Below, piece by piece: positions 21,561 through 32,109 of a stretch of DNA of 45,166 nucleotides; position 1 is the stretch's first letter; every line of letters starts with the position of its first letter. The translations under genes and the position numbers were made by a program. The DNA comes from Meiothermus rufus DSM 22234. Its GTDB lineage: Bacteria; Deinococcota; Deinococci; Deinococcales; Thermaceae. The stretch covers positions 1 to 45,166 of the forward strand of contig NZ_AUHY01000020.1 of the NCBI RefSeq assembly GCF_000423425.1, in the 5' to 3' direction. The notes under the pieces are model-generated. The model did not search any database, had not been told where the DNA came from, and saw nothing but the letters and a program-made list of their open reading frames with translations.

Positions 21561-22859
21561 ATGAAAACCCAACGCTCAGAGGAGCTTTTCGCCCGGGCCC
21601 AGCAGCTCATCCCTGGGGGGGTCAACTCGCCGGTACGGGCTTTTCGCGCTGTGGGAGGTACTCCCCGCTTTATGGCCCGGGCCCAGGGGGCCTACCTGTG
21701 GGATGCCGATGGCAGCCGGCTGCTGGACTACGTGGGTTCCTGGGGGCCGATGATTCTGGGGCACAACCATCCCCAGGTGCTGGCCGCCATCCAGGAGGCT
21801 GTGCAGGAAGGCCTGAGCTACGGGGCCCCTACCGAACGCGAGGTACGGCTGGCCGAGCGAATTCTGGCCGCCTACCCCAGTTGCCAGAGGGTGCGCCTGG
21901 TCTCCAGCGGCACTGAAGCCACCATGAGTGCCTTGCGTCTGGCCCGTGGCTATACCGGGCGCGAGCTTATCGTCAAGTTTCGTGGCAACTACCACGGCCA
22001 CGCTGACAGCCTGCTGGTGCAGGCCGGTTCGGGCCTGCTTACCGCAGGTGGAGGAACGGCCCAGAGCGCTCCTTCCAGTGCGGGGGTACCTCCGGCTTTT
22101 GCTGAGCGTACCCTGGTGGCCGACTACAACGACCCTGAGGGCCTCGAGGCCCTCTTTGCTGCTCGGGGGGAGGAGATTGCTGCGGTCATCTTCGAGCCAG
22201 TGGTGGGCAACGCCGGGGTGTTGGTGCCCACACCGGCTTTCCTGGAGGCGCTCCACCGCCTGACCCGGCAGTACGGGGCCCTGCTGATTGCCGACGAGGT
22301 AATGACCGGTTTCCGCTTAGCCCCGGGTGGGGCGGTGGAATTGCTGGACCTGAAGCCCGACCTGGTTTGCTGGGGTAAGGTAATTGGCGGAGGTCTGCCG
22401 GTGGGCGCTTATGGCGGACGGGCCGAGATCATGGAGATGGTGGCCCCCAGCGGCCCGGTCTACCAGGCCGGCACCCTGAGCGGCAACCCGGTGGCTATGG
22501 CCGCGGGGCTGGCTACCCTGGAGGCTCTGGCCCAGGACCCGCCCTACGCCCGGCTCGAGGCCTACGGTGCGGCTTTGGAGCAGGGTCTTAGGGAAATCTT
22601 TACCCAGGCTGGGGTGCCAGTGGCCATCAACCGGGTAGGCTCGATGATTACGGTCTTTTTCCGCCCAGGGCCGGTGCACACCTATGCCGAGGCGGTGGCC
22701 TCCGATACCGAGGCCTTCAAGCGCTTCTTCCACGGCCTGCTAGAGCGCGGGGTCTACTGGCCCCCCAGCCAGTTCGAAGCGGCCTTCATCTCGGCTGCCC
22801 ACGGGCCAAGGGAACTCGAGCGTACCCTAGAAGCCGTGCGCGATGTATATTTGGGCTAA
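21561..22859 (+). CDS. hemL: Glutamate-1-semialdehyde aminomutase HemL
   Basis: PLP enzyme that turns glutamate-1-semialdehyde into 5-aminolevulinate, the step after HemA. It is 432 residues. It starts MKTQRSEELFARAQQLIPGG. The signature includes GVNSPVRAF, ADEVMTGFR and the PLP lysine in CWGKVIGGGLPVGAYGG. The ATG at 21561 is chosen from homology and promoter spacing. An upstream frame to 21399 is non-homologous. Confidence 0.97.
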   Translation: MKTQRSEELFARAQQLIPGGVNSPVRAFRAVGGTPRFMARAQGAYLWDADGSRLLDYVGSWGPMILGHNHPQVLAAIQEAVQEGLSYGAPTEREVRLAERILAAYPSCQRVRLVSSGTEATMSALRLARGYTGRELIVKFRGNYHGHADSLLVQAGSGLLTAGGGTAQSAPSSAGVPPAFAERTLVADYNDPEGLEALFAARGEEIAAVIFEPVVGNAGVLVPTPAFLEALHRLTRQYGALLIADEVMTGFRLAPGGAVELLDLKPDLVCWGKVIGGGLPVGAYGGRAEIMEMVAPSGPVYQAGTLSGNPVAMAAGLATLEALAQDPPYARLEAYGAALEQGLREIFTQAGVPVAINRVGSMITVFFRPGPVHTYAEAVASDTEAFKRFFHGLLERGVYWPPSQFEAAFISAAHGPRELERTLEAVRDVYLG

Positions 22860-22918
22860 AAAGAAACCAACTGGGCTGAAGCCACGCTGCCTGTGCAGGT
22901 TGTGCAGTAAAAATGGTG

Positions 22919-22935
22919 CATACGTCATCAGTATG
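22919..22935. repeat. Short inverted repeat upstream of purine-catabolism operon
   Basis: CATAC-N7-GTATG, about 70 bp upstream of the main operator-like repeat and with the same 7-nt spacing. It may be a second, weaker regulator site or chance. Confidence 0.3.
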
Positions 22936-22989
22936 GCCGTTATATGCCCGGTTAGTCCTTGCTTTGTGTAAGGTGAGCAGGGAAAGCCG

Positions 22990-23010
22990 TACATTTGTCG
23001 AAAAAATGTA
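22990..23010. promoter_or_regulatory. 21-bp inverted repeat, likely operator
   Basis: TACATTT (22990-22996) and AAATGTA (23004-23010) form perfect 7-bp arms around a 7-nt spacer. The repeat covers the -35 box of the promoter at 22995-23023, so a dimeric regulator bound here would block RNA polymerase. No regulator gene is adjacent. Confidence 0.6.
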
Positions 23011-23023
23011 TGACGCTTATACT
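22995..23023 (+). promoter_or_regulatory. Promoter of ABC importer/urate operon
   Basis: TTGTCG (22995-23000), 17-nt spacer, TATACT (23018-23023). This is one of the best sigma-70-type matches in the window. The start would be near 23030, giving a short leader with TTTGGAGG before the ATG at 23058. Confidence 0.7.
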
Positions 23024-23057
23024 ATGCCCCAGGCGCACAGCGCCTTTGGAGGTTCGC

Positions 23058-24077
23058 ATGAGAGCAAAAGCCCTTTTTTTCATCGGTCTGCTGCTGGCCG
23101 GATTAGCCCTGGCCCAGCCGCGCACCAACCTGCGCTTTACCCTGGACTTTGCCTTCCAGGGGCCTCAGGCTCCCTTCCTCTTGGCCTTGGATAAGGGCTA
23201 CTACGCCGCCGAGGGGCTCAACGTGACCATTGACCGGGGCTTTGGCTCAGCCGACGCGATTAGCCGTATTGCTGCTGGTAACTATGAGATGGGCTTTGCC
23301 GACATCAACTCCCTCATCGAGTTCAATGTGCGTAACCCCAGCAACCAACTGCTAGCGGTGTTCATGGTTTACAACACCACCCCAGCGGCGGTCTTCGCCC
23401 TCAAGGGTAGGGGCATCAGCCGGCCTGCTGATCTAGTGGGCAAGACCCTAGCCGCACCAGCGGGCGACGCGGGGCGGCGGCTTTTCCCGGTTTTTGCCGA
23501 GGCCACCGGGATAGATGCCAGCCGGGTCAACTTTATCAACGTGGACGTTCCCCTGCGGGAGCCTACCCTAGTACGGGGCCAGGCCGATGCCATCACCGGT
23601 TTTTACTTTACCTCGCTGCTCAATCTTAAGAATCTGGGGGTCAAACCGGAGGACCTGGTGGTTCTGAAGTACGCTGATTTTACCCAGGACCTCTACGGTA
23701 ACGCCGTGGTGGTGCGGCGCGACTTTGCCCAGGCCAACCCGCAGGCGGTTGCAGCTTTCCTGCGGGCGCTGGTGCGGGGTTTCAAGGACGTCATTGCCAA
23801 CCCAGACGAGGGTATCGCTGCGGTCAAGCGCCGCGATGGCCTGATTAACGAAGCCCTCGAGCGCGAACGCCTGGTGTTGGCCTTCAACTCCCACGTGCTG
23901 ACCGCCGATAGCCGGGCTTTTGGGCTGGGCTCGGTACGGCGCGAGCGGATGGAGCGCAATATCCAGGCGGTAAGCAAGGCTTTTGGCCTGCCCGCTACCC
24001 TGCGGCTTGAGCAGCTTTGGACCGACCGCTTTTTGCCACCCATTGCCGAACGCCGGGTGACCGGCTCACTGCGCTAG
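23058..24077 (+). CDS. ABC transporter substrate-binding protein (NMT1/THI5-like)
   Basis: A 339-residue periplasmic solute-binding protein of the NitT/TauT/NMT1 group. The signal peptide is MRAKALFFIGLLLAGLALA with cleavage before Gln. The ligand-binding core has FALDKGYY-like LLALDKGYYAAEGLNV and GFGSADAISRIAAGNYEMGFADIN, the standard first lobe. The family binds nitrate, sulfonates, thiamine precursors, hydantoins and similar small molecules. Since all downstream enzymes degrade urate and ureides, a purine or ureide ligand is the best inference. The ATG at 23058 has TTTGGAGG upstream. It is the first gene of the operon. Confidence 0.9.
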   Translation: MRAKALFFIGLLLAGLALAQPRTNLRFTLDFAFQGPQAPFLLALDKGYYAAEGLNVTIDRGFGSADAISRIAAGNYEMGFADINSLIEFNVRNPSNQLLAVFMVYNTTPAAVFALKGRGISRPADLVGKTLAAPAGDAGRRLFPVFAEATGIDASRVNFINVDVPLREPTLVRGQADAITGFYFTSLLNLKNLGVKPEDLVVLKYADFTQDLYGNAVVVRRDFAQANPQAVAAFLRALVRGFKDVIANPDEGIAAVKRRDGLINEALERERLVLAFNSHVLTADSRAFGLGSVRRERMERNIQAVSKAFGLPATLRLEQLWTDRFLPPIAERRVTGSLR

Positions 24078-24116
24078 GTAGGTGTGCTAAGCTAGGGGAC
24101 ACCGGCTAGGGGAGGC

Positions 24117-24920
24117 ATGGCGTTCATTCAGCTCAGCAACGTTAGCCTGCGCTACGAAAACGGCTACCTGGCGGTGGAGGGGGTCAGCCTCTCCATCGCC
24201 CAGGGGGAGTTTGTGGGCCTGGTGGGCCCTTCGGGCTGCGGCAAGTCCACCCTGCTACGGGTGATCTCGGGGCTGCGTCCGCCCAGCAGCGGGGAGGCCA
24301 CCGTACACGGCCAGCCGGTGCGTGGCCCCATCGCCAGCATCGGGATGGCTTTCCAAAACCCCACCCTGATGCCCTGGCGCACGGTTTTGCAGAACATTTT
24401 GTTGCCCCTCGAGGTCTCTCCCCAGCACAAGTGGGCCTTCCGCCGGAACCCCCAGCCTTACCTCGAGGCAGCCCGCGAGCTGATGGCCTCAGTGGGGCTT
24501 TCCGGCTTTGAAAACGCCCGGGTGTGGGAGCTTTCCGGGGGGATGCAGCAGCGGGCTAGCTTGTGTCGGGCTTTGATTCACCAACCGGAAATCCTTTTAC
24601 TCGACGAGCCTTTTTCCGCTCTGGACGCTTTTACCCGCGAGGAGCTGTGGCAGGCCATGCAGGTGCTCTATCTACAGCGCCGCCCCACCGTGGTGCTGGT
24701 TACCCACGACCTGCGCGAGGCGGTTTACCTGTGCGATACCATCCACACCATGAGCAGCCGCCCGGGCCGCATCGCCTATACCCGCCGGGTAGAGTTTCCC
24801 CGTCCTAGGCCGCTCGAGCTTACCTACCAGGACGACTTCGCCCACATCGTGCGGGAGTTGCGCGAGCAAATTGGTGGAATGCGCACCCAGATTAGCACCC
24901 TGCGGGGGGTGGGCCCATGA
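24117..24920 (+). CDS. ABC transporter ATP-binding protein (NitT/TauT type)
   Basis: A 267-residue ATPase that powers the importer. Walker A is GPSGCGKSTLL, the Q loop is in MAFQNPTLMPWRTV, the signature is LSGGMQQRASL, Walker B is ILLLDEPFSALD and the switch His is in VTHDLREA. The ATG at 24117 follows GGGGAGG. It is coupled to the permease by ATGA. Confidence 0.94.
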   Translation: MAFIQLSNVSLRYENGYLAVEGVSLSIAQGEFVGLVGPSGCGKSTLLRVISGLRPPSSGEATVHGQPVRGPIASIGMAFQNPTLMPWRTVLQNILLPLEVSPQHKWAFRRNPQPYLEAARELMASVGLSGFENARVWELSGGMQQRASLCRALIHQPEILLLDEPFSALDAFTREELWQAMQVLYLQRRPTVVLVTHDLREAVYLCDTIHTMSSRPGRIAYTRRVEFPRPRPLELTYQDDFAHIVRELREQIGGMRTQISTLRGVGP

Positions 24921-25669
24921 GGCGGACCCAGGACACCTTGGCGGCGGTGGGGGCCACGCTGGGGTTGTTTGTGCTTTGGGAACTGGCGGTGCGGCTTTTC
25001 AAAATTCCCCCCTTCGTGCTACCGGCCCCCTCCCAAGCCCTAGAGGCCCTGCGCCCGGTCTGGGGGGCGGTGCTGGGCCACGCCTGGCAGACCCTCTGGA
25101 CCACTCTGGTGGGGTTCGCCCTGGCGGTGGGGGCTGGGGTGCTGCTGGGCGCGGCGGTGGGCACCTCGAGGCCCCTCAATCTGGCCCTTTACCCGCTCTT
25201 GGTGGGTTTCAACAGCGTGCCCAAGGCAGCTTTGGTGCCGGTGCTGGTGCTGTGGTTTGGGATTGGTACGGTGCCGGCCATCCTGACCGCTTTCCTCATC
25301 TCCTTCTTTCCTATTGTGGTCAACGTGGCTACCGGCTTAGCCTCGGTGCCTCCCGAGCTGCGGGAGGTGCTAAAGGTGTTGGGCTCGAGCCGCTTCGAGG
25401 CCTTTACCCGGGTTTCGGTACCCTTCTCCTTGCCCTATTTCTTTGCTTCGCTCAAGGTAGCCATCACCCTGGCCTTCGTGGGCACGGTGATCTCCGAGAT
25501 CGCCGCCTCGCAGAAGGGGATCGGCTACATGATGACTTCAGCCAGCTCCCAGTTCAACGTGCCCTTGGTATTCGGTGGCCTTTTGGTGATTGCCGCCATG
25601 GGCATCGCCTTGTATGGGGTGTTCGCCCTGCTCGAGCGCCGACTGGTGGGCTGGGCCTACCGTAGCTGA
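24917..25669 (+). CDS. ABC transporter permease (NitT/TauT type)
   Basis: A 250-residue inner-membrane permease with about six helices. The EAA coupling loop is seen at ELREVLKVLGSSRFEAFTRVSVPFSLPY. It overlaps the ATPase gene by 4 nt and ends 5 nt before uraD, tying transport directly to purine breakdown. Confidence 0.93.
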   Translation: MRRTQDTLAAVGATLGLFVLWELAVRLFKIPPFVLPAPSQALEALRPVWGAVLGHAWQTLWTTLVGFALAVGAGVLLGAAVGTSRPLNLALYPLLVGFNSVPKAALVPVLVLWFGIGTVPAILTAFLISFFPIVVNVATGLASVPPELREVLKVLGSSRFEAFTRVSVPFSLPYFFASLKVAITLAFVGTVISEIAASQKGIGYMMTSASSQFNVPLVFGGLLVIAAMGIALYGVFALLERRLVGWAYRS

Positions 25670-25674
25670 GCGCG

Positions 25675-26178
25675 ATGATCAACCTAGCCACCCTCAACCA
25701 GCTTTCCCGCGAAGCCTTTGTGAACGCCATCGGCTGGGTTTTCGAGCACTCTCCCTGGGTGGCCGAGCAAGCCTGGGCCCAGCGCCCCTGGTCTAGCCCC
25801 CTGGCCCTCTACCAAAGCCTGGTGGCGGTGGTGCAGGCCGCCCCCCGGGAGGCCCAGCTTGCCCTGATCCGGGCCCACCCCGACCTAGGTAGCAAAGCCC
25901 GCATGGCCCCGGCCTCGGCCCAGGAGCAGCAGGGGGCTGGCCTGGATGCCTTGAGCCCGGAGGAGTACGCCGATCTTCTTGCCCTCAACCAGCGCTACCG
26001 TGAGCGCTTCGGCTTCCCCTTCATCCTGGCGGTGCGGGGTAAGGGCAAGGCCGAGGTCTTTCAGGCCCTGCGCGACCGGCTGCACAACGACCTCGAGGCC
26101 GAGTTCCACACGGCATTGGAACAGATCTACCAGATTGCCCGCTTTCGTCTAGCCGACATTCTACAAGAGGCTATATGA
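25675..26178 (+). CDS. uraD: OHCU decarboxylase
   Basis: Decarboxylates 2-oxo-4-hydroxy-4-carboxy-5-ureidoimidazoline to S-allantoin, the third step after urate. It is 167 residues. The catalytic His is in IRAHPDLGSKA, and the substrate loop is RFGFPFILAVRGK. It overlaps puuD by ATGA. Confidence 0.93.
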   Translation: MINLATLNQLSREAFVNAIGWVFEHSPWVAEQAWAQRPWSSPLALYQSLVAVVQAAPREAQLALIRAHPDLGSKARMAPASAQEQQGAGLDALSPEEYADLLALNQRYRERFGFPFILAVRGKGKAEVFQALRDRLHNDLEAEFHTALEQIYQIARFRLADILQEAI

Positions 26179-27482
26179 ACCCCCTACACCAAGACCGACT
26201 GCGCCTGGTGAAATGGCCCTGGATTCTGGCCATTTTAGCCGTTTTCGCTCTGGGCCTCTACCTGACGCTGGCCAATGGCTGGCAGGCCCACGCCCGGGAG
26301 TGGCTGGGCCTGGTGGTGCGCTGGCTGCACATCATCTACGGCATCGCCTGGATTGGGGCTAGTTTCTACTTCATCTTTTTAGAGAACAGCCTCGAGCGCC
26401 AAGGGGTGCGGCCCGAGCTTTCGGGCAACCTATGGGCCATTCACGGCGGGGGCATCTACTACCTGGAAAAGTACAAGACCGCTCCGGCCCAGCTACCCCG
26501 CACCCTGCACTGGTTCAAGTGGGATGCCTACCTGACCTGGGTCACCGGGTTTTTGCTTTTGGTGATTGTCTACTACGCCGATCCCCGGGCCATTCTGCTC
26601 CCGCCCGGCAGCCCTTTGCCTGCCGGGGTGGCCATCGCCATCGCGGTAGGAAGCCTGGTGCTGGCCTGGTTGGTCTACGCGGGCCTTTCCCGCACCGAGC
26701 TGCTCTACCGTCCGGGGCTATTCTTGTTGGTGGGGGGGCTACTGGTGGCCCTGGCGGCCTGGGGGCTGGGCCAGGTGTTCAGCGGGCGGGGTACCTTTAT
26801 GCACATCGGGGCCATGCTGGGCACCATCATGGCGGCCAATGTCTTTTTTGTCATCATTCCTTCGCAGAAGAAGCTGGTGCAGGCGGCGCAAAAAGGGGAG
26901 GCTCTCGACCCCGGCTTTGTGAACTGGGTGCAGCTTCGTTCCCGCCACAACAACTACCTAACCCTGCCGGTGCTCTTCACCATGATCGCCCACCACTTCC
27001 CCACCACCTATAGCCACGGGGCCCAGTGGCTGATTCTGATACTGCTTTTTGCCGCGGGGGTGGCGGTGCGGCACTTTATCAACGTGACCGAGAAGGCCCA
27101 CCAAAAAACCTTGGTGGAGGGTGGGGCCATGCCTTACCTGCTGGTGCTGGCGGCGGCATTACTCCTGGTGGCCTTCTACCTGACCGCCCCTAAAAAGGCT
27201 CCCGTGGCCACCGAGCCGGTGCCCTTCGCCGAGGTCGAAGCCATCATCCAGGCCCACTGCCAGATGTGTCACGCAACCCGGCCCACCCAGCCCGGCTTCG
27301 CCTCGGCCCCAGGGGGGGTGGTGCTGGAGACCCCGGAGCAGATTGTGGCCTTGGCCCAGAAAATCAAACAGGTGTCGGTGGACAGCCAGTACATGCCCCT
27401 GTTGCTGCCAGGGGTTCCGCCCCTGAGTGAGGCCCAGCGGGCCCGGCTGGGGGCCTGGGTGGCCCAGGGGGCTCCGCGGTAG
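26175..27482 (+). CDS. puuD: Membrane urate oxidase PuuD (cytochrome c-linked)
   Basis: Oxidises urate to 5-hydroxyisourate at the membrane, passing electrons to cytochrome c instead of making peroxide like classic uricase. It is 435 residues. The N-terminal part is the DUF989-type membrane domain with about nine helices and conserved His residues (RWLHIIYGIAWIGASFYF; MIAHHFPTTYSH). The C-terminal domain holds a c-type heme site CQMCH (Cys362, His366). The whole protein matches the PuuD layout. It lies between uraD and uraH, whose products handle its product. Confidence 0.93.
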   Translation: MNPLHQDRLRLVKWPWILAILAVFALGLYLTLANGWQAHAREWLGLVVRWLHIIYGIAWIGASFYFIFLENSLERQGVRPELSGNLWAIHGGGIYYLEKYKTAPAQLPRTLHWFKWDAYLTWVTGFLLLVIVYYADPRAILLPPGSPLPAGVAIAIAVGSLVLAWLVYAGLSRTELLYRPGLFLLVGGLLVALAAWGLGQVFSGRGTFMHIGAMLGTIMAANVFFVIIPSQKKLVQAAQKGEALDPGFVNWVQLRSRHNNYLTLPVLFTMIAHHFPTTYSHGAQWLILILLFAAGVAVRHFINVTEKAHQKTLVEGGAMPYLLVLAAALLLVAFYLTAPKKAPVATEPVPFAEVEAIIQAHCQMCHATRPTQPGFASAPGGVVLETPEQIVALAQKIKQVSVDSQYMPLLLPGVPPLSEAQRARLGAWVAQGAPR

Positions 27483-27493
27483 GATACTGGCGT

Positions 27494-27850
27494 ATGGCCC
27501 GGCTTACGACCCACGTCCTCGATACGGCCCACGGGCATCCGGCCACGGGCCTCGAGCTCGAGCTGTACCGCATCGGCCCTGCGGGCCAGCGCACCCTCGT
27601 GGCCCAGGCCCGCACCAACGCCGATGGCCGCACCGAGGCCCCTTTGCTTTCCGGCGAGACCCTGCCTACTGGGGTCTACGAACTGGTTTTTTATGTGGCG
27701 GCCTACTTCCGTGCCCAGGGGGTTCACCTCCCCGACCCCCCTTTTCTGGATGAGGTGGTGGTGCGCTTTGGTCTGGCCGAGGCCAAGGGCCACTACCATG
27801 TGCCCCTCTTAGTCTCCCCCTACGGCTACAGCACCTACCGTGGGAGTTAG
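27494..27850 (+). CDS. uraH: 5-hydroxyisourate hydrolase
   Basis: Transthyretin-like enzyme that opens 5-hydroxyisourate to OHCU. It is 118 residues. Diagnostic motifs are LTTHVLDTAHGHPA near the N terminus and the C-terminal YGYSTYRGS, which together hold the active-site His, Arg and Ser. There is no signal peptide. A TAGGAT box 8 nt before the ATG could give an internal leaderless start, since no ribosome site is seen in the 11-nt gap after puuD. Confidence 0.95.
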   Translation: MARLTTHVLDTAHGHPATGLELELYRIGPAGQRTLVAQARTNADGRTEAPLLSGETLPTGVYELVFYVAAYFRAQGVHLPDPPFLDEVVVRFGLAEAKGHYHVPLLVSPYGYSTYRGS

Positions 27851-27854
27851 CCCT

Positions 27855-29099
27855 ATGGACCTCGAGGTGCTGGCTCAGGAAGTTCTCGAGCGCTGCCAGA
27901 GGCTTGGGCGCTACTCCGAGGAGCCAGGCCGGCTAACCCGCACCTTTCTTTCGCCCCCCATGCGCCAGGTGCACGCCGAGCTGGCCGGCTGGATGGAGGA
28001 GCTGGGTATGACGGTGCGCCTGGACGCGGTGGGCAACCTGATTGGCCACTACCCCGGCCAGGCCCCCGGGGCCCCCTTGTTTTTGCTGGGTTCACACGTG
28101 GACACCGTGCGCGACGCGGGCTGCTACGACGGGGTGTTGGGGGTGGTGTTGGGGCTGGCCCTGGTGAAAGCCTTGGAGGGGAAGCGCCTGCCAGTGGCCT
28201 TAGAGGTTATCGCCTTTTCCGAGGAGGAAGGGGTGCGCTATGGGGTGCCTTTTTTGGGCAGCAAGGCGGTAGCAGGCCGGTTTGAAGCCGAGTACCTGGA
28301 TTTGCAGGACGCCCAAGGCCAGCGGGTGCTCGAGGCCCTCCGGGAATTTGGCCTCGAGCCGGCCCGTCTGCCCCAGGCTGCCTATGACCCGGCCCACGTG
28401 CGGGGCTACCTGGAGTTCCACATCGAGCAGGGGCCAGTGCTGGAGGCTTTGGGGGCCCCGCTGGGTCTGGTAGAGGCTATCGTGGGGCAGAGCCGGCTGG
28501 AAGTGGTTTTCCGCGGCCAGGCTGGCCATGCCGGCACCACCCCCATGGCCCTGCGGCGGGACGCTCTGGCCGGGGCGGCCGAGTGGATGACCCTGGTGGA
28601 GCGCGAGGCCCGGGCCGAGCCAGGACTGGTGGCCACGGTGGGGATGATTACCGCCCGACCCGGGGCGGCCAATGTGATTCCGGGAGAGGTGCAGCTTAGC
28701 CTGGATGTGCGCCATGCCGACGACGAGGTGCGCAGCCGTTCTGTGGCCCACCTGGTGGCTCGAGCCCAGCAGGTGGCCCAGCGCCGGGGCCTCGAGCTGG
28801 CCTTCCAGACCCTCTACGAGCAGGCCGCGGTGCCCTGCGATGCCGGGCTAAACAGCCTGCTGGAGCGGGCCTTGCAGGCCGAGGGTCTGCCGCTGCACCG
28901 GCTGGTCTCGGGAGCCGGCCACGATGCTATGATTATGGCTTCCATTTGCCCGGCTACCCTGCTTTTCATCCGCAGCCCAGGTGGGCTTTCCCACCACCCC
29001 CAGGAGTCGGTCTGGCTGCAGGATGTAGCCGCTGCACTGCGGGTGGGACGGACTTTTTTGCGGATGCTGGCTCAGGAGGAACACCCATGCTCGACCTGA
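27855..29099 (+). CDS. allC: Allantoate amidohydrolase (M20 family)
   Basis: Dinuclear metal amidohydrolase, 414 residues. Metal ligands are seen in GSHVDTVRDAGCYDGVLGV (His, Asp), FSEEEGVRYG (Glu), EFHIEQGPVLE (His) and SGAGHDAM (His). The same family includes N-carbamoyl-L-amino acid hydrolases. Its place before allantoinase and ureidoglycine aminohydrolase makes allantoate the likely substrate (products ureidoglycine, CO2 and ammonia). The ATG at 27855 follows GGGAG. An upstream GTG at 27840 overlaps uraH and is rejected. Confidence 0.88.
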   Translation: MDLEVLAQEVLERCQRLGRYSEEPGRLTRTFLSPPMRQVHAELAGWMEELGMTVRLDAVGNLIGHYPGQAPGAPLFLLGSHVDTVRDAGCYDGVLGVVLGLALVKALEGKRLPVALEVIAFSEEEGVRYGVPFLGSKAVAGRFEAEYLDLQDAQGQRVLEALREFGLEPARLPQAAYDPAHVRGYLEFHIEQGPVLEALGAPLGLVEAIVGQSRLEVVFRGQAGHAGTTPMALRRDALAGAAEWMTLVEREARAEPGLVATVGMITARPGAANVIPGEVQLSLDVRHADDEVRSRSVAHLVARAQQVAQRRGLELAFQTLYEQAAVPCDAGLNSLLERALQAEGLPLHRLVSGAGHDAMIMASICPATLLFIRSPGGLSHHPQESVWLQDVAAALRVGRTFLRMLAQEEHPCST

Positions 29100-30430
29100 T
29101 CGTCCGCGGAGGGCACCTGGTTACCCAAAGCAAGGTGGTGCAGGCCGACTTAGGGGTGCTGGAGGGGCGGATTGTCCAGATAGCCCCGGCCATTGACCAG
29201 CCCGCACGCCGGGAGGTTATGGCCCAGGGGCTTTACGTTTTTCCCGGCTTGATCGACGTGCATGTGCATTTCAACGAACCTGGCCGGGTCCACTGGGAGG
29301 GGATAGAAACCGGCAGCGCCGCTTTGGCTGCGGGGGGCGGTACGGCTTTTTTTGATATGCCCCTCAACTCGCTGCCCTGTACCCTCGAGGCCAGAGCCTT
29401 CGCGGCCAAGCTGGCGGCCATGCGAGCTTCGTCCTACACCGATTTTGCCCTGTGGGGTGGCCTGACCCCGGGTAACCTGGAGCACCTGCCCGAGCTGGCT
29501 GAGTGCGGGGCGATTGGCTTCAAGGCCTTTATGTGCCACTCTGGCCTTCCAGAGTTTCCCCCCTGCGACGACGGCACGCTCTACGAAGGCATGCGTATCG
29601 CGGCTCAGCTGGGGCTGCCGGTGGCGGTGCACGCCGAGTCGGAGGCCCTGACCGCCCATCTTGCCCGTCTGCGGGCGACCGGGGCCACCACCTGGCGCGA
29701 CTACTTGGCCTCGAGGCCACTCTTCACCGAGCTCGAGGCTATTCAGCGGGCTCTTTTGCTGGCCCAGGAGACCGGTTGCAAACTGCACATCGTGCACATC
29801 AGCGCAGGGGCCGGGGTAGTGCTGGCTGCCGAGGCCAAAGCCCGGGGGGTGGATGTAAGCCTCGAGACCTGCCCTCACTACCTGGCCTTTACCGAGGAAG
29901 ACCTGGAGCGGCTGGGGGCCTTGGCCAAGTGTGCGCCCCCGCTGCGCTCCCAGAGGGAGCAGGAAGGGCTTTGGGCGGCGGTGCTGGAGGGTACGGTAGA
30001 CCTGGTGGCCTCCGACCACTCCCCCAGCCCACCCGAAAGTAAGCAGGGCCCCGATTTTTTGGCCCTGTGGGGGGGGATCGCTGGGGTGCAATCCACCCTG
30101 GGGGTGATGCTTACCGAAGGCTGGCAACGACGGGGGCTGGCCCTAGAGCACCTGGCTGCCCTCGTGGCCCTGAACCCTGCCAAGCGCTTTGGCCTGCGGC
30201 AAAAAGGGCAGCTTGCGCTGGGCTACGAGGCCGATTTCACCTTGGTGGATCTCTCGCAAAGCTATACCCTCACTCCCCAGCACCTGCGCTACCGCCACCC
30301 CCAGTCGCCCTACCTGGGCCGGAGGTTTCAAGGAGTGGTGCAAAGCACCTGGCTTAGAGGTGAGCCCATCTACTGGGAGGGTAAAATAACCCGGCCTAGC
30401 GAGGTTCGCCTGCTGACGAGGAACCCATGA
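29087..30430 (+). CDS. allB: Allantoinase
   Basis: Cyclic amidohydrolase that opens allantoin to allantoate. It is 447 residues. Metal ligands are DVHVHFNEPG, the carboxylated Lys in GFKAFMCHSG, AVHAES, HIVHISAG and VASDHSPSP. The ATG at 29087 follows CAGGAGGA and overlaps the end of allC by 13 nt. It is coupled to allE by ATGA. Dihydropyrimidinase relatives look similar; the operon settles the call. Confidence 0.93.
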   Translation: MLDLIVRGGHLVTQSKVVQADLGVLEGRIVQIAPAIDQPARREVMAQGLYVFPGLIDVHVHFNEPGRVHWEGIETGSAALAAGGGTAFFDMPLNSLPCTLEARAFAAKLAAMRASSYTDFALWGGLTPGNLEHLPELAECGAIGFKAFMCHSGLPEFPPCDDGTLYEGMRIAAQLGLPVAVHAESEALTAHLARLRATGATTWRDYLASRPLFTELEAIQRALLLAQETGCKLHIVHISAGAGVVLAAEAKARGVDVSLETCPHYLAFTEEDLERLGALAKCAPPLRSQREQEGLWAAVLEGTVDLVASDHSPSPPESKQGPDFLALWGGIAGVQSTLGVMLTEGWQRRGLALEHLAALVALNPAKRFGLRQKGQLALGYEADFTLVDLSQSYTLTPQHLRYRHPQSPYLGRRFQGVVQSTWLRGEPIYWEGKITRPSEVRLLTRNP

Positions 30431-31173
30431 GCCTGAGCGGATTCACCCGTACCCACGTGGCCCCCGACCACGCCCTTCTGACCCCAGACACCTTTGTGCG
30501 GGCTTTTCTGCCCGGTTGGCACCAGACCGCTTGCATCGTGCATATCTCCCCCGAGCTAGGGGCTCGTTTTCAGATGTATACCGTGGAGATGCAGCCCGGG
30601 GGCAGCGGTGAGTTGAGCCTTTTGGATATCCAGCGCTTCGCCTACGTGCTCGAGGGGGAGGTGAGCCTCGAGGTGGGGGAGGTGCGGCACACCCTCAGGC
30701 CGCATGGCTTTGCCTACCTACCGGCCAACACCCCGCACCGCTTCAGCAGCCAGGGCCCAAGCCGCATGGTGGTCTTCGACAAGCCCTACCAGTCCTTGGC
30801 CGGCGCCGAGGCCCCTTCACCGGTGCTGGGCTACGAGCCCGAGGTGCCCAGCAACCCTTTGCTGGGCGACGAGGCCCTGCAGGTGCGCCTACTGTTGCCC
30901 GATACCCCTTCCTTCGACCTGGCGGTCAACACCATGACCTTTGCCCCCGGGGCCCACCTGCCCTTTGTGGAGACCCATGTGATGGAGCACGGCCTGTTGT
31001 TTTTGCAGGGGGGTGGGGTGTACCGCCTGGGCGAGCGCTGGTATACCGTACAGGCCGGGGATGTCATCTGGATGGCCTCGTACTGCCCCCAGTGGTTTGG
31101 GGCTTTGGGCAAGACCCAGAGCAAGTACCTTCTGTATAAGGACGTGAACCGCTACTCGCTGGAATCGGTGTAG
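30427..31173 (+). CDS. allE: (S)-ureidoglycine aminohydrolase
   Basis: Bicupin metalloenzyme that converts S-ureidoglycine to S-ureidoglycolate and ammonia. It is 248 residues. The first cupin carries YVLEGEVSLEVG and YLPANTPHRF; the second has LPFVETHVMEHGLLFLQGG, the Mn-site region of this family, and DVIWMASYCPQWF near the end. It is the last gene of the urate operon. The next enzyme (ureidoglycolate lyase or dehydrogenase) is not in the window. Confidence 0.92.
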   Translation: MSLSGFTRTHVAPDHALLTPDTFVRAFLPGWHQTACIVHISPELGARFQMYTVEMQPGGSGELSLLDIQRFAYVLEGEVSLEVGEVRHTLRPHGFAYLPANTPHRFSSQGPSRMVVFDKPYQSLAGAEAPSPVLGYEPEVPSNPLLGDEALQVRLLLPDTPSFDLAVNTMTFAPGAHLPFVETHVMEHGLLFLQGGGVYRLGERWYTVQAGDVIWMASYCPQWFGALGKTQSKYLLYKDVNRYSLESV

Positions 31174-31206
31174 TTTTGATAGGCCTCGAGGCGATCCACC
31201 CTCTGT

Positions 31207-32109
31207 ATGACCCCGGTACAAGCCCTTAGCCTGAGCCTGGTGGTGGCGGGCCTGGTGTTTGCCCTAAAGTGGCTGGCCTATGTGTTTACCGGCTCGGTGG
31301 CCCTTTACTCCGACGCTTTGGAGTCGGTGGTCAACATTGTGGCGGCAGGGGCGGCCCTGGTGGCGGTGCTGGTCTCGCGCCGTCCGGCGGACCACAACCA
31401 CCCCTACGGACACACCAAAGCTGAGTATTTTTCGGCTGTGCTGGAAGGGGTGCTGATCGTATTGGCGGCCCTGGCCATCGTGCGCGAGGCCTGGCCCAGG
31501 CTGGTGAGCCCTGCGCCAGTGCAAGAGCTGGGCCTGGGGCTGTTGTTTTCGCTGGCCGCCTCGAGCCTGAACGCGGCTTTGGGCTGGTTCTTGCTGGTTC
31601 GGGGACGCAAAGCCCGCTCTCCTGCGGTTATTGCCGATGGCAAACACATCCTGACCGATGTGCTGACCTCGCTGGGGGTGCTGGTAGGGGTTGGGCTGGC
31701 CTGGCTCAGCGGTTGGTGGATTCTCGATCCCCTGTTGGCCATTGGGGTGGCGGGCAACATCCTGTGGGTGGGCTGGCGTTTGGTGCGGGACTCGGTGGGA
31801 GGGCTGATGGACGAGGCCCTTCCTGCACAGGAGCTGGCCGATATACGCCTGGCTCTCAACCGCGCCCTTCAGGGCCTAGCCTCCGAGGGAAAGGTATTGG
31901 AGGTGCACGACCTGCGCACGCGGCGGGCTGGTCCCCGCACCTTTGTGGAGTTTCACCTGGTGGTTCCTGGGGCTACCTCGGTAGAACAGGCCCACCAGAT
32001 CTGCGACCGCCTCGAGATGGCCCTTCAGGCCCAGCTAGACCAGGTCCACACCACCATTCATGTAGAGCCCGACCACAAGGCCAAGCACACCACCTTCCGC
32101 ATAGGCTGA
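31207..32109 (+). CDS. Cation diffusion facilitator metal exporter
   Basis: A 300-residue CDF-family transporter that exports divalent metal (Zn, Fe, Co or Mn) by proton exchange. About six helices are seen. Metal site motifs are YSDALESVVN in helix 2 and HILTDVLTSLG in helix 5. The His-rich segment DHNHPYGHTKAEY follows helix 2. A C-terminal cytoplasmic ferredoxin-like domain (HTTIHVEPDHKAKH) is present. It starts 33 nt after allE and may be co-transcribed, though the functions are unrelated. Confidence 0.92.
   Translation: MTPVQALSLSLVVAGLVFALKWLAYVFTGSVALYSDALESVVNIVAAGAALVAVLVSRRPADHNHPYGHTKAEYFSAVLEGVLIVLAALAIVREAWPRLVSPAPVQELGLGLLFSLAASSLNAALGWFLLVRGRKARSPAVIADGKHILTDVLTSLGVLVGVGLAWLSGWWILDPLLAIGVAGNILWVGWRLVRDSVGGLMDEALPAQELADIRLALNRALQGLASEGKVLEVHDLRTRRAGPRTFVEFHLVVPGATSVEQAHQICDRLEMALQAQLDQVHTTIHVEPDHKAKHTTFRIG

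What the first reader, a model, noticed from the sequence alone, without database searches (positions are those of the whole stretch)
23058..31173. One operon joins an ABC importer to a nearly full urate-to-ureidoglycolate pathway
Ten genes in tight array encode a NitT/TauT-type importer, PuuD, HIU hydrolase, OHCU decarboxylase, allantoinase, allantoate amidohydrolase and ureidoglycine aminohydrolase. A membrane cytochrome c urate oxidase in a thermophile feeds electrons to the respiratory chain without making peroxide. The importer family is not known to me as a purine carrier, so its ligand may be new (urate, allantoin or another ureide).
Basis: partly seen in the sequence, partly recalled or inferred. 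Interest (0 to 1): 0.65.

Follow-up and report, generated by a model that had tools for sequence, protein, structure and literature searches.

The report
Probable urate importer in uric-acid operon
A hot-water bacterium (Meiothermus) carries, in one gene row, enzymes for breaking down uric acid and a pump of a type so far linked to taurine, nitrate or vitamin precursors; comparison across many phyla indicates that this pump belongs to a widespread, uncharacterised family that most likely imports uric acid or a close purine relative.

Summary
The gene row is real. Nine genes (not ten), 23058-31173, all + strand: substrate-binding protein, ATPase, permease, OHCU decarboxylase, PuuD (CXXCH present), HIU hydrolase, allantoate amidohydrolase, allantoinase, ureidoglycine aminohydrolase; junctions -13 to +39 bp. 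The host is Meiothermus. XDH, a BMP-type ABC importer and a candidate ureidoglycolate amidohydrolase lie at a second locus. No NCS1 or NCS2 purine permease was found in the genus.

The importer's ligand is the open point. Relatives recur beside three purine pathways in five other phyla: XDH in Chloroflexota and Bipolaricaulota; PuuD-OHCU-HIUH-(ABC)-XDH operons in Alphaproteobacteria; XDH/SsnA/YgeW-like reductive urate clusters in Armatimonadota and kin. In 289 alphaproteobacterial genomes, 27 of 33 carriers have PuuD (47 of 256 non-carriers); five pairs lie within 5 kb (0.1 expected).

Urate is common to the oxidative and reductive routes. Three Meiothermus species lack the importer, one by a visible deletion, yet keep the enzymes: it supplies an extra substrate.

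Verdict: an oxopurine importer, urate most likely; a new substrate class for the NitT/TauT family. Outlying relatives beside cyanurate, F420 or uracil genes leave cyclic-ureide breadth open. Binding is untested.

The parts
22995..23023 (+). promoter-like site TTGTCG-17-TATACT, probable start of the operon
   Evidence: only + strand promoter-like match in 22700-31400; the same place reads TTGACA-17/18-TATACT in ten Meiothermus relatives including the importer remnant
23031..23045 (+). short hairpin AGGCGC-ACA-GCGCCT just before the ribosome-binding site (5' leader hairpin or operator dyad)
   Evidence: most relatives have GGTGT...ACACC or GGTG...CACC at the same place; both sides changed together in the window
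23058..24077 (+). substrate-binding protein, NMT1 (NitT/TauT) family, signal peptide; proposed urate/oxopurine receptor
   Evidence: PF09084 9.8e-39; AlphaFold pLDDT 93, best PDB folds 4nmy (thiamin), 3ix1 (formylaminopyrimidine), Thi5; context of relatives
24117..24920 (+). ABC ATPase of the importer
   Evidence: PF00005 1.4e-33
24917..25669 (+). ABC permease of the importer
   Evidence: PF00528 2.5e-26
25675..26178 (+). OHCU decarboxylase
   Evidence: TIGR03164 199.8 bits, cut-off 96
26175..27482 (+). PuuD, membrane urate oxidase with C-terminal cytochrome c domain
   Evidence: PF06181 5.5e-109; CXXCH and distal Met conserved
27494..27850 (+). 5-hydroxyisourate hydrolase, C-terminal YRGS
   Evidence: TIGR02962 130 bits, cut-off 87
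27855..29099 (+). allantoate amidohydrolase (M20)
   Evidence: NF006775 596 bits, cut-off 479
29087..30430 (+). allantoinase
   Evidence: NF004839 678 bits, cut-off 631
30427..31173 (+). (S)-ureidoglycine aminohydrolase
   Evidence: TIGR03214 302 bits, cut-off 200

Best explanation
The three ABC genes encode an ATP-driven importer for an oxopurine, most likely urate. They are co-transcribed with the enzymes that take urate to ureidoglycolate. Proposed route: the periplasmic binding protein captures urate and the permease/ATPase brings it in. PuuD oxidises it and passes electrons to its own haem c, and from there probably to a terminal oxidase. HIU hydrolase and OHCU decarboxylase make S-allantoin; allantoinase, allantoate amidohydrolase and ureidoglycine aminohydrolase release ammonia; the M20 enzyme beside XDH probably finishes ureidoglycolate. 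Purine bases that need XDH would enter by the separate BMP-type importer beside XDH. Shown here: gene identities, gene order, the conserved promoter, cross-phylum linkage and natural absences. Inferred: ligand, direction of transport, co-transcription, electron acceptor, and the roles of the BMP importer and second M20 enzyme.
For: Nine-gene array. Importer intact directly before OHCU in ten Meiothermus genomes. No NCS2 or NCS1 purine permease in the genus. ABC genes or the receptor beside XDH-type genes in Chloroflexota and Bipolaricaulota, beside XDH-SsnA-luciferase-family or YgeX/YgeW/carbamate-kinase-like clusters (pathway in PMC12507026), and inside PuuD-OHCU-HIUH-ABC-XDH operons in Alphaproteobacteria. 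27 of 33 carriers versus 47 of 256 non-carriers have PuuD (p 6e-13; 2e-11 without the three genomes known beforehand); five pairs within 5 kb against 0.1 expected. Of 15 further proteobacterial carriers 14 hold PuuD somewhere in the genome, and 15 of 16 non-proteobacterial carriers hold an SsnA-family match, nine of them over its curated cut-off. Control NMT1 loci in the same genomes show core markers in 4 of 39, against 18 of 52 (p 0.012). Purine contexts fall in several separated clades of the receptor tree.
Against: No binding or growth data. Linkage statistics are not corrected for phylogeny or genome size. Most Xanthobacteraceae-type carriers have no purine genes beside the ABC. Some relatives sit beside a cyanurate hydrolase and allantoinase (L221), an F420 gene cluster (L219), a URC4-like uracil gene (L125) or urea genes (L218), so ligands may differ between clades; L217 and L218 are in the same clade as the Meiothermus proteins. 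Several Meiothermus genomes run the enzymes without the importer.
Confidence: 0.7

Rival explanations
1. The importer carries allantoin or another ureide/hydantoin, entering the pathway after PuuD.
For: Three of the enzymes handle ureides; some relatives lie beside allantoinase-like and hydantoinase-like genes.
Against: Allantoin is not an intermediate of the reductive urate pathway (PMC12507026) whose genes accompany relatives L116, L118, L119 and L120, nor a substrate of XDH, which accompanies the Chloroflexota and Bipolaricaulota relatives.
Confidence: 0.12
2. The family is promiscuous for cyclic ureides and oxo-azaheterocycles (purines, uracil, barbiturate, cyanurate, hydantoin); urate is one ligand of several.
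For: Nearest solved folds bind pyrimidine-type rings; relatives beside cyanurate hydrolase, F420 genes and a URC4-like gene.
Against: Those contexts are few and on separate branches; purine contexts dominate.
Confidence: 0.11
3. The importer serves an unrelated ligand (taurine, nitrate, thiamine precursor) and its place is accidental.
For: NMT1 family; the enzymes are kept without it in G009, G010 and (in part) G013; stand-alone copies elsewhere.
Against: No substrate-specific NCBIfam cut-off reached; five receptor-PuuD pairs within 5 kb in other genomes against 0.1 expected; conserved position in ten Meiothermus genomes.
Confidence: 0.07

Closest known systems
PuuD cytochrome c urate oxidase pathway (Doniselli et al. 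2015, PMC4562309; Agrobacterium fabrum)
   Same: membrane Urate_ox_N domain with C-terminal CXXCH cytochrome c, clustered with HIU hydrolase and OHCU decarboxylase
   Different: thermophile of another phylum, continuing to ureidoglycine aminohydrolase in one array, with an NMT1-type ABC importer in front
NitT/TauT-type ABC importers (TauABC, SsuABC, NrtABCD, ThiXYZ)
   Same: one binding protein, one permease and one ATPase, all matching these families; NMT1 fold
   Different: no substrate-specific model reached; the receptor clade is separate from other NMT1 proteins of the same genomes; purine gene context
ThiY formylaminopyrimidine-binding protein (3ix1) and C. difficile thiamin-binding protein (4nmy)
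   Same: closest solved folds, TM-score 0.87 by target length
   Different: 19-22% identity; the family-wide invariant Arg167 aligns with Gly in ThiY
Reductive uric acid gene cluster (E. coli/C. difficile type, PMC12507026)
   Same: relatives of this importer sit beside XDH, SsnA, carbamoyltransferase, carbamate kinase and PLP genes in Armatimonadota and kin
   Different: the Meiothermus operon is the oxidative, PuuD-dependent route; the passages of that paper read here do not discuss such an importer
NCS2 and BMP-type purine importers
   Same: the presumed job of purine uptake
   Different: different families; NCS2 not found in Meiothermus; a BMP-type ABC sits beside XDH at another locus

Membership tests
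NitT/TauT (NMT1) ABC importer | NMT1 binding protein with cognate permease and ATPase in tandem | tested here: met
   PF09084, PF00528, PF00005 above cut-off
Taurine, sulfonate or nitrate importer | reaches a curated equivalog or subfamily cut-off | tested here: not met
   receptor: 53.7 of 304 bits (taurine), 65.8 of 163.5 (SsuA); permease: 86.6 of 209 (NtrB)
ThiY/HMP-precursor receptor | binds a thiamine pyrimidine precursor | tested here: inconclusive
   same fold but different conserved residues and no thiamine genes seen near the ABC among the neighbours examined; binding not testable
PuuD urate oxidase | Urate_ox_N domain plus CXXCH cytochrome c with distal Met | tested here: met
PuuD urate oxidase | urate oxidation without H2O2 | not testable with these tools
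   literature only (PMC4562309)
Urate/oxopurine ABC importer (proposed) | recurrent linkage to purine catabolism beyond close relatives | tested here: met
Urate/oxopurine ABC importer (proposed) | receptor binds urate | not testable with these tools
   needs ITC or thermal shift

The most novel reading that the evidence does not exclude
The importer represents an ABC-type urate importer family of the NitT/TauT class, spread over at least six phyla and shared by the oxidative (PuuD) and reductive (XdhD/SsnA) urate routes.
Probability: 0.5. Interest if true: 0.65.

Novelty: new variant of a known kind. Interest (0 to 1): 0.55.

Why it matters
From general knowledge, bacterial urate uptake is usually assigned to NCS2 permeases; in this genus none could be found. 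An ATP-driven, high-affinity urate importer family would fill that gap and give a marker gene for urate scavenging. It would also turn many proteins annotated only as 'nitrate/sulfonate/taurine ABC transporter' into testable purine importers. The natural Meiothermus pairs with and without the importer make the question directly testable.

Tried and rejected
Considered and dropped: that the importer is the sole purine entry (a BMP-type ABC sits beside XDH, and G009 and G010 keep the enzymes without it); that the pathway stops at ureidoglycolate in this genome (a second M20 enzyme lies beside XDH, though its substrate is unproven); that the CDF gene at 31207 belongs (not conserved there). A known RNA family in the window: none. 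The leader dyad in front of other genes: matches at XDH loci fall inside the XDH coding sequence. Literature searches for an NMT1-type purine importer found none, but the library holds only open-licence papers. One ocean study mentions a 'purine ABC transporter' whose family I could not determine (PMC11698098).

Full report
OBSERVATION. Nine + strand genes lie between 23058 and 31173. Junctions are 39, -4, 5, -4, 11, 4, -13 and -4 bp (with starts at 27855 and 29087), so a single transcript is the simple reading. The only + strand promoter-like site in the stretch, TTGTCG-17-TATACT at 22995-23023, sits 34 bp before the receptor gene. Ten relatives have TTGACA-17/18-TATACT there, followed by GGTGT...ACACC or a close form of it; the window has GGCGC...GCGCC, a paired change.

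HOST. All 18 genomes of the genus searched, this one included, have PuuD; none of the 14 searched genomes of the sister genus labelled g5 does.

REST OF THE PATHWAY. A second locus, G000:C2 (L096), holds XDH small and large subunits, XdhC, a BMP-type ABC importer and a second M20 amidase. That amidase is 80-83% identical to the gene after the ureidoglycine aminohydrolase in relatives, and is a candidate ureidoglycolate amidohydrolase (inference). No NCS2 or NCS1 permease was found in any Meiothermus genome.

NATURAL EXPERIMENTS. The importer is intact before OHCU in ten Meiothermus genomes. In G009 and G010 hemL abuts OHCU directly. In G013 (L051) a deletion joins receptor codon ~113 to the permease tail while promoter, OHCU, PuuD, HIUH and AAH stay. 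ALN and UGlyAH were not seen in the G013 stretch read, so keeping of the whole enzyme row is shown for G009 and G010 and only in part for G013. G001 and G017 lack the importer too. In G004, G005 and G015 PuuD lies near a contig end, and no receptor was found elsewhere. So the importer adds a substrate; the enzymes do not depend on it.

LIGAND. Among 57 relatives from named genomes, the ABC genes or the receptor lie beside XDH-type genes in Chloroflexota and Bipolaricaulota. In L120 the neighbours are XDH, SsnA and a luciferase-family enzyme, the set PMC12507026 describes for Chloroflexota. In L116, L118 and L119 they are PLP enzymes, carbamoyltransferases and carbamate kinase, with SsnA on the same contig. 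L124, L126 and L135 have PuuD and/or HIUH. Control NMT1 loci from the same genomes: 4 of 39 with core purine markers, against 18 of 52 (p 0.012). In 289 genomes of the class of G083, PuuD occurs in 27 of 33 carriers and 47 of 256 others; removing three genomes known beforehand leaves p 2e-11. Five receptor-PuuD pairs lie within 5 kb against 0.1 expected; three are PuuD-OHCU-HIUH-receptor-ATPase-permease-XDHa-XDHb in one row (L211, L212, L213). These counts ignore phylogeny and genome size. Of 15 further proteobacterial carriers, 14 hold PuuD somewhere in the genome; 15 of 16 non-proteobacterial carriers hold an SsnA-family match, nine over the curated cut-off. Urate is the metabolite common to the oxidative and reductive routes; XDH makes or reduces it.

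STRUCTURE. The AlphaFold model has mean pLDDT 93. Best PDB folds bind pyrimidine-type rings: 4nmy, 3ix1, Thi5. Across 47 family members Asp137, Arg167, Tyr213, Glu268 and Arg271 are invariant. Arg167 aligns with Gly in ThiY; that it touches the ligand is a guess, since coordinates could not be inspected.

TREE. Family receptors form one group apart from 16 control NMT1 proteins (support 93; control branches are long). Purine contexts occur in several separated clades. Exceptions: cyanurate hydrolase/allantoinase (L221), F420 genes (L219), URC4-like DUF1688 (L125), urea genes (L218). L217 and L218, Deinococcus plasmid copies, are in the same starred set as Meiothermus without purine genes beside them.

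ELECTRONS. Two COX1 genes and cytochrome c assembly proteins are in the genome. The electron route from PuuD is inference. PMC4562309 reports no catalase induction with PuuD but found azide inhibition uninformative.

JUDGEMENT. Gene content is ordinary; the importer assignment is the new part. I put 0.7 on an oxopurine (urate most likely), about 0.5 on urate specifically.

Noticed in passing
window 23031-23045; L036, L038, L039, L041-L043, L045-L047, L051 upstream of the receptor gene: Conserved dyad GGTGT...ACACC between -10 box and ribosome-binding site, with a paired change to GGCGC...GCGCC in the window: 5' leader hairpin or operator.
   Followed up: partly
L051 8510-8900 (G013): Deletion fused the receptor gene (codon ~113) to the permease end, removing the importer while leaving promoter and at least four downstream enzyme genes.
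   Followed up: yes
L126 8804-9715: PuuD-like protein with the membrane domain but no C-terminal cytochrome c; a GTP cyclohydrolase I gene lies next to the HIU hydrolase there.
   Followed up: no
L219 1320-10527 (Paracoccus plasmid): A relative of the importer beside F420 biosynthesis genes and a TIGR03842 F420-dependent oxidoreductase.
   Followed up: partly
L221 7917-16936 (Skermanella plasmid): Two related receptors, allantoinase-like, TRZ/ATZ-family and cyanuric acid amidohydrolase genes in one row: possible cyclic-ureide or triazine uptake and breakdown.
   Followed up: partly
window 31207-32109: CDF metal-efflux gene (MntE-like 404 bits, under the 500 cut-off) 33 bp after the operon, where relatives have the second M20 amidase.
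   Followed up: no
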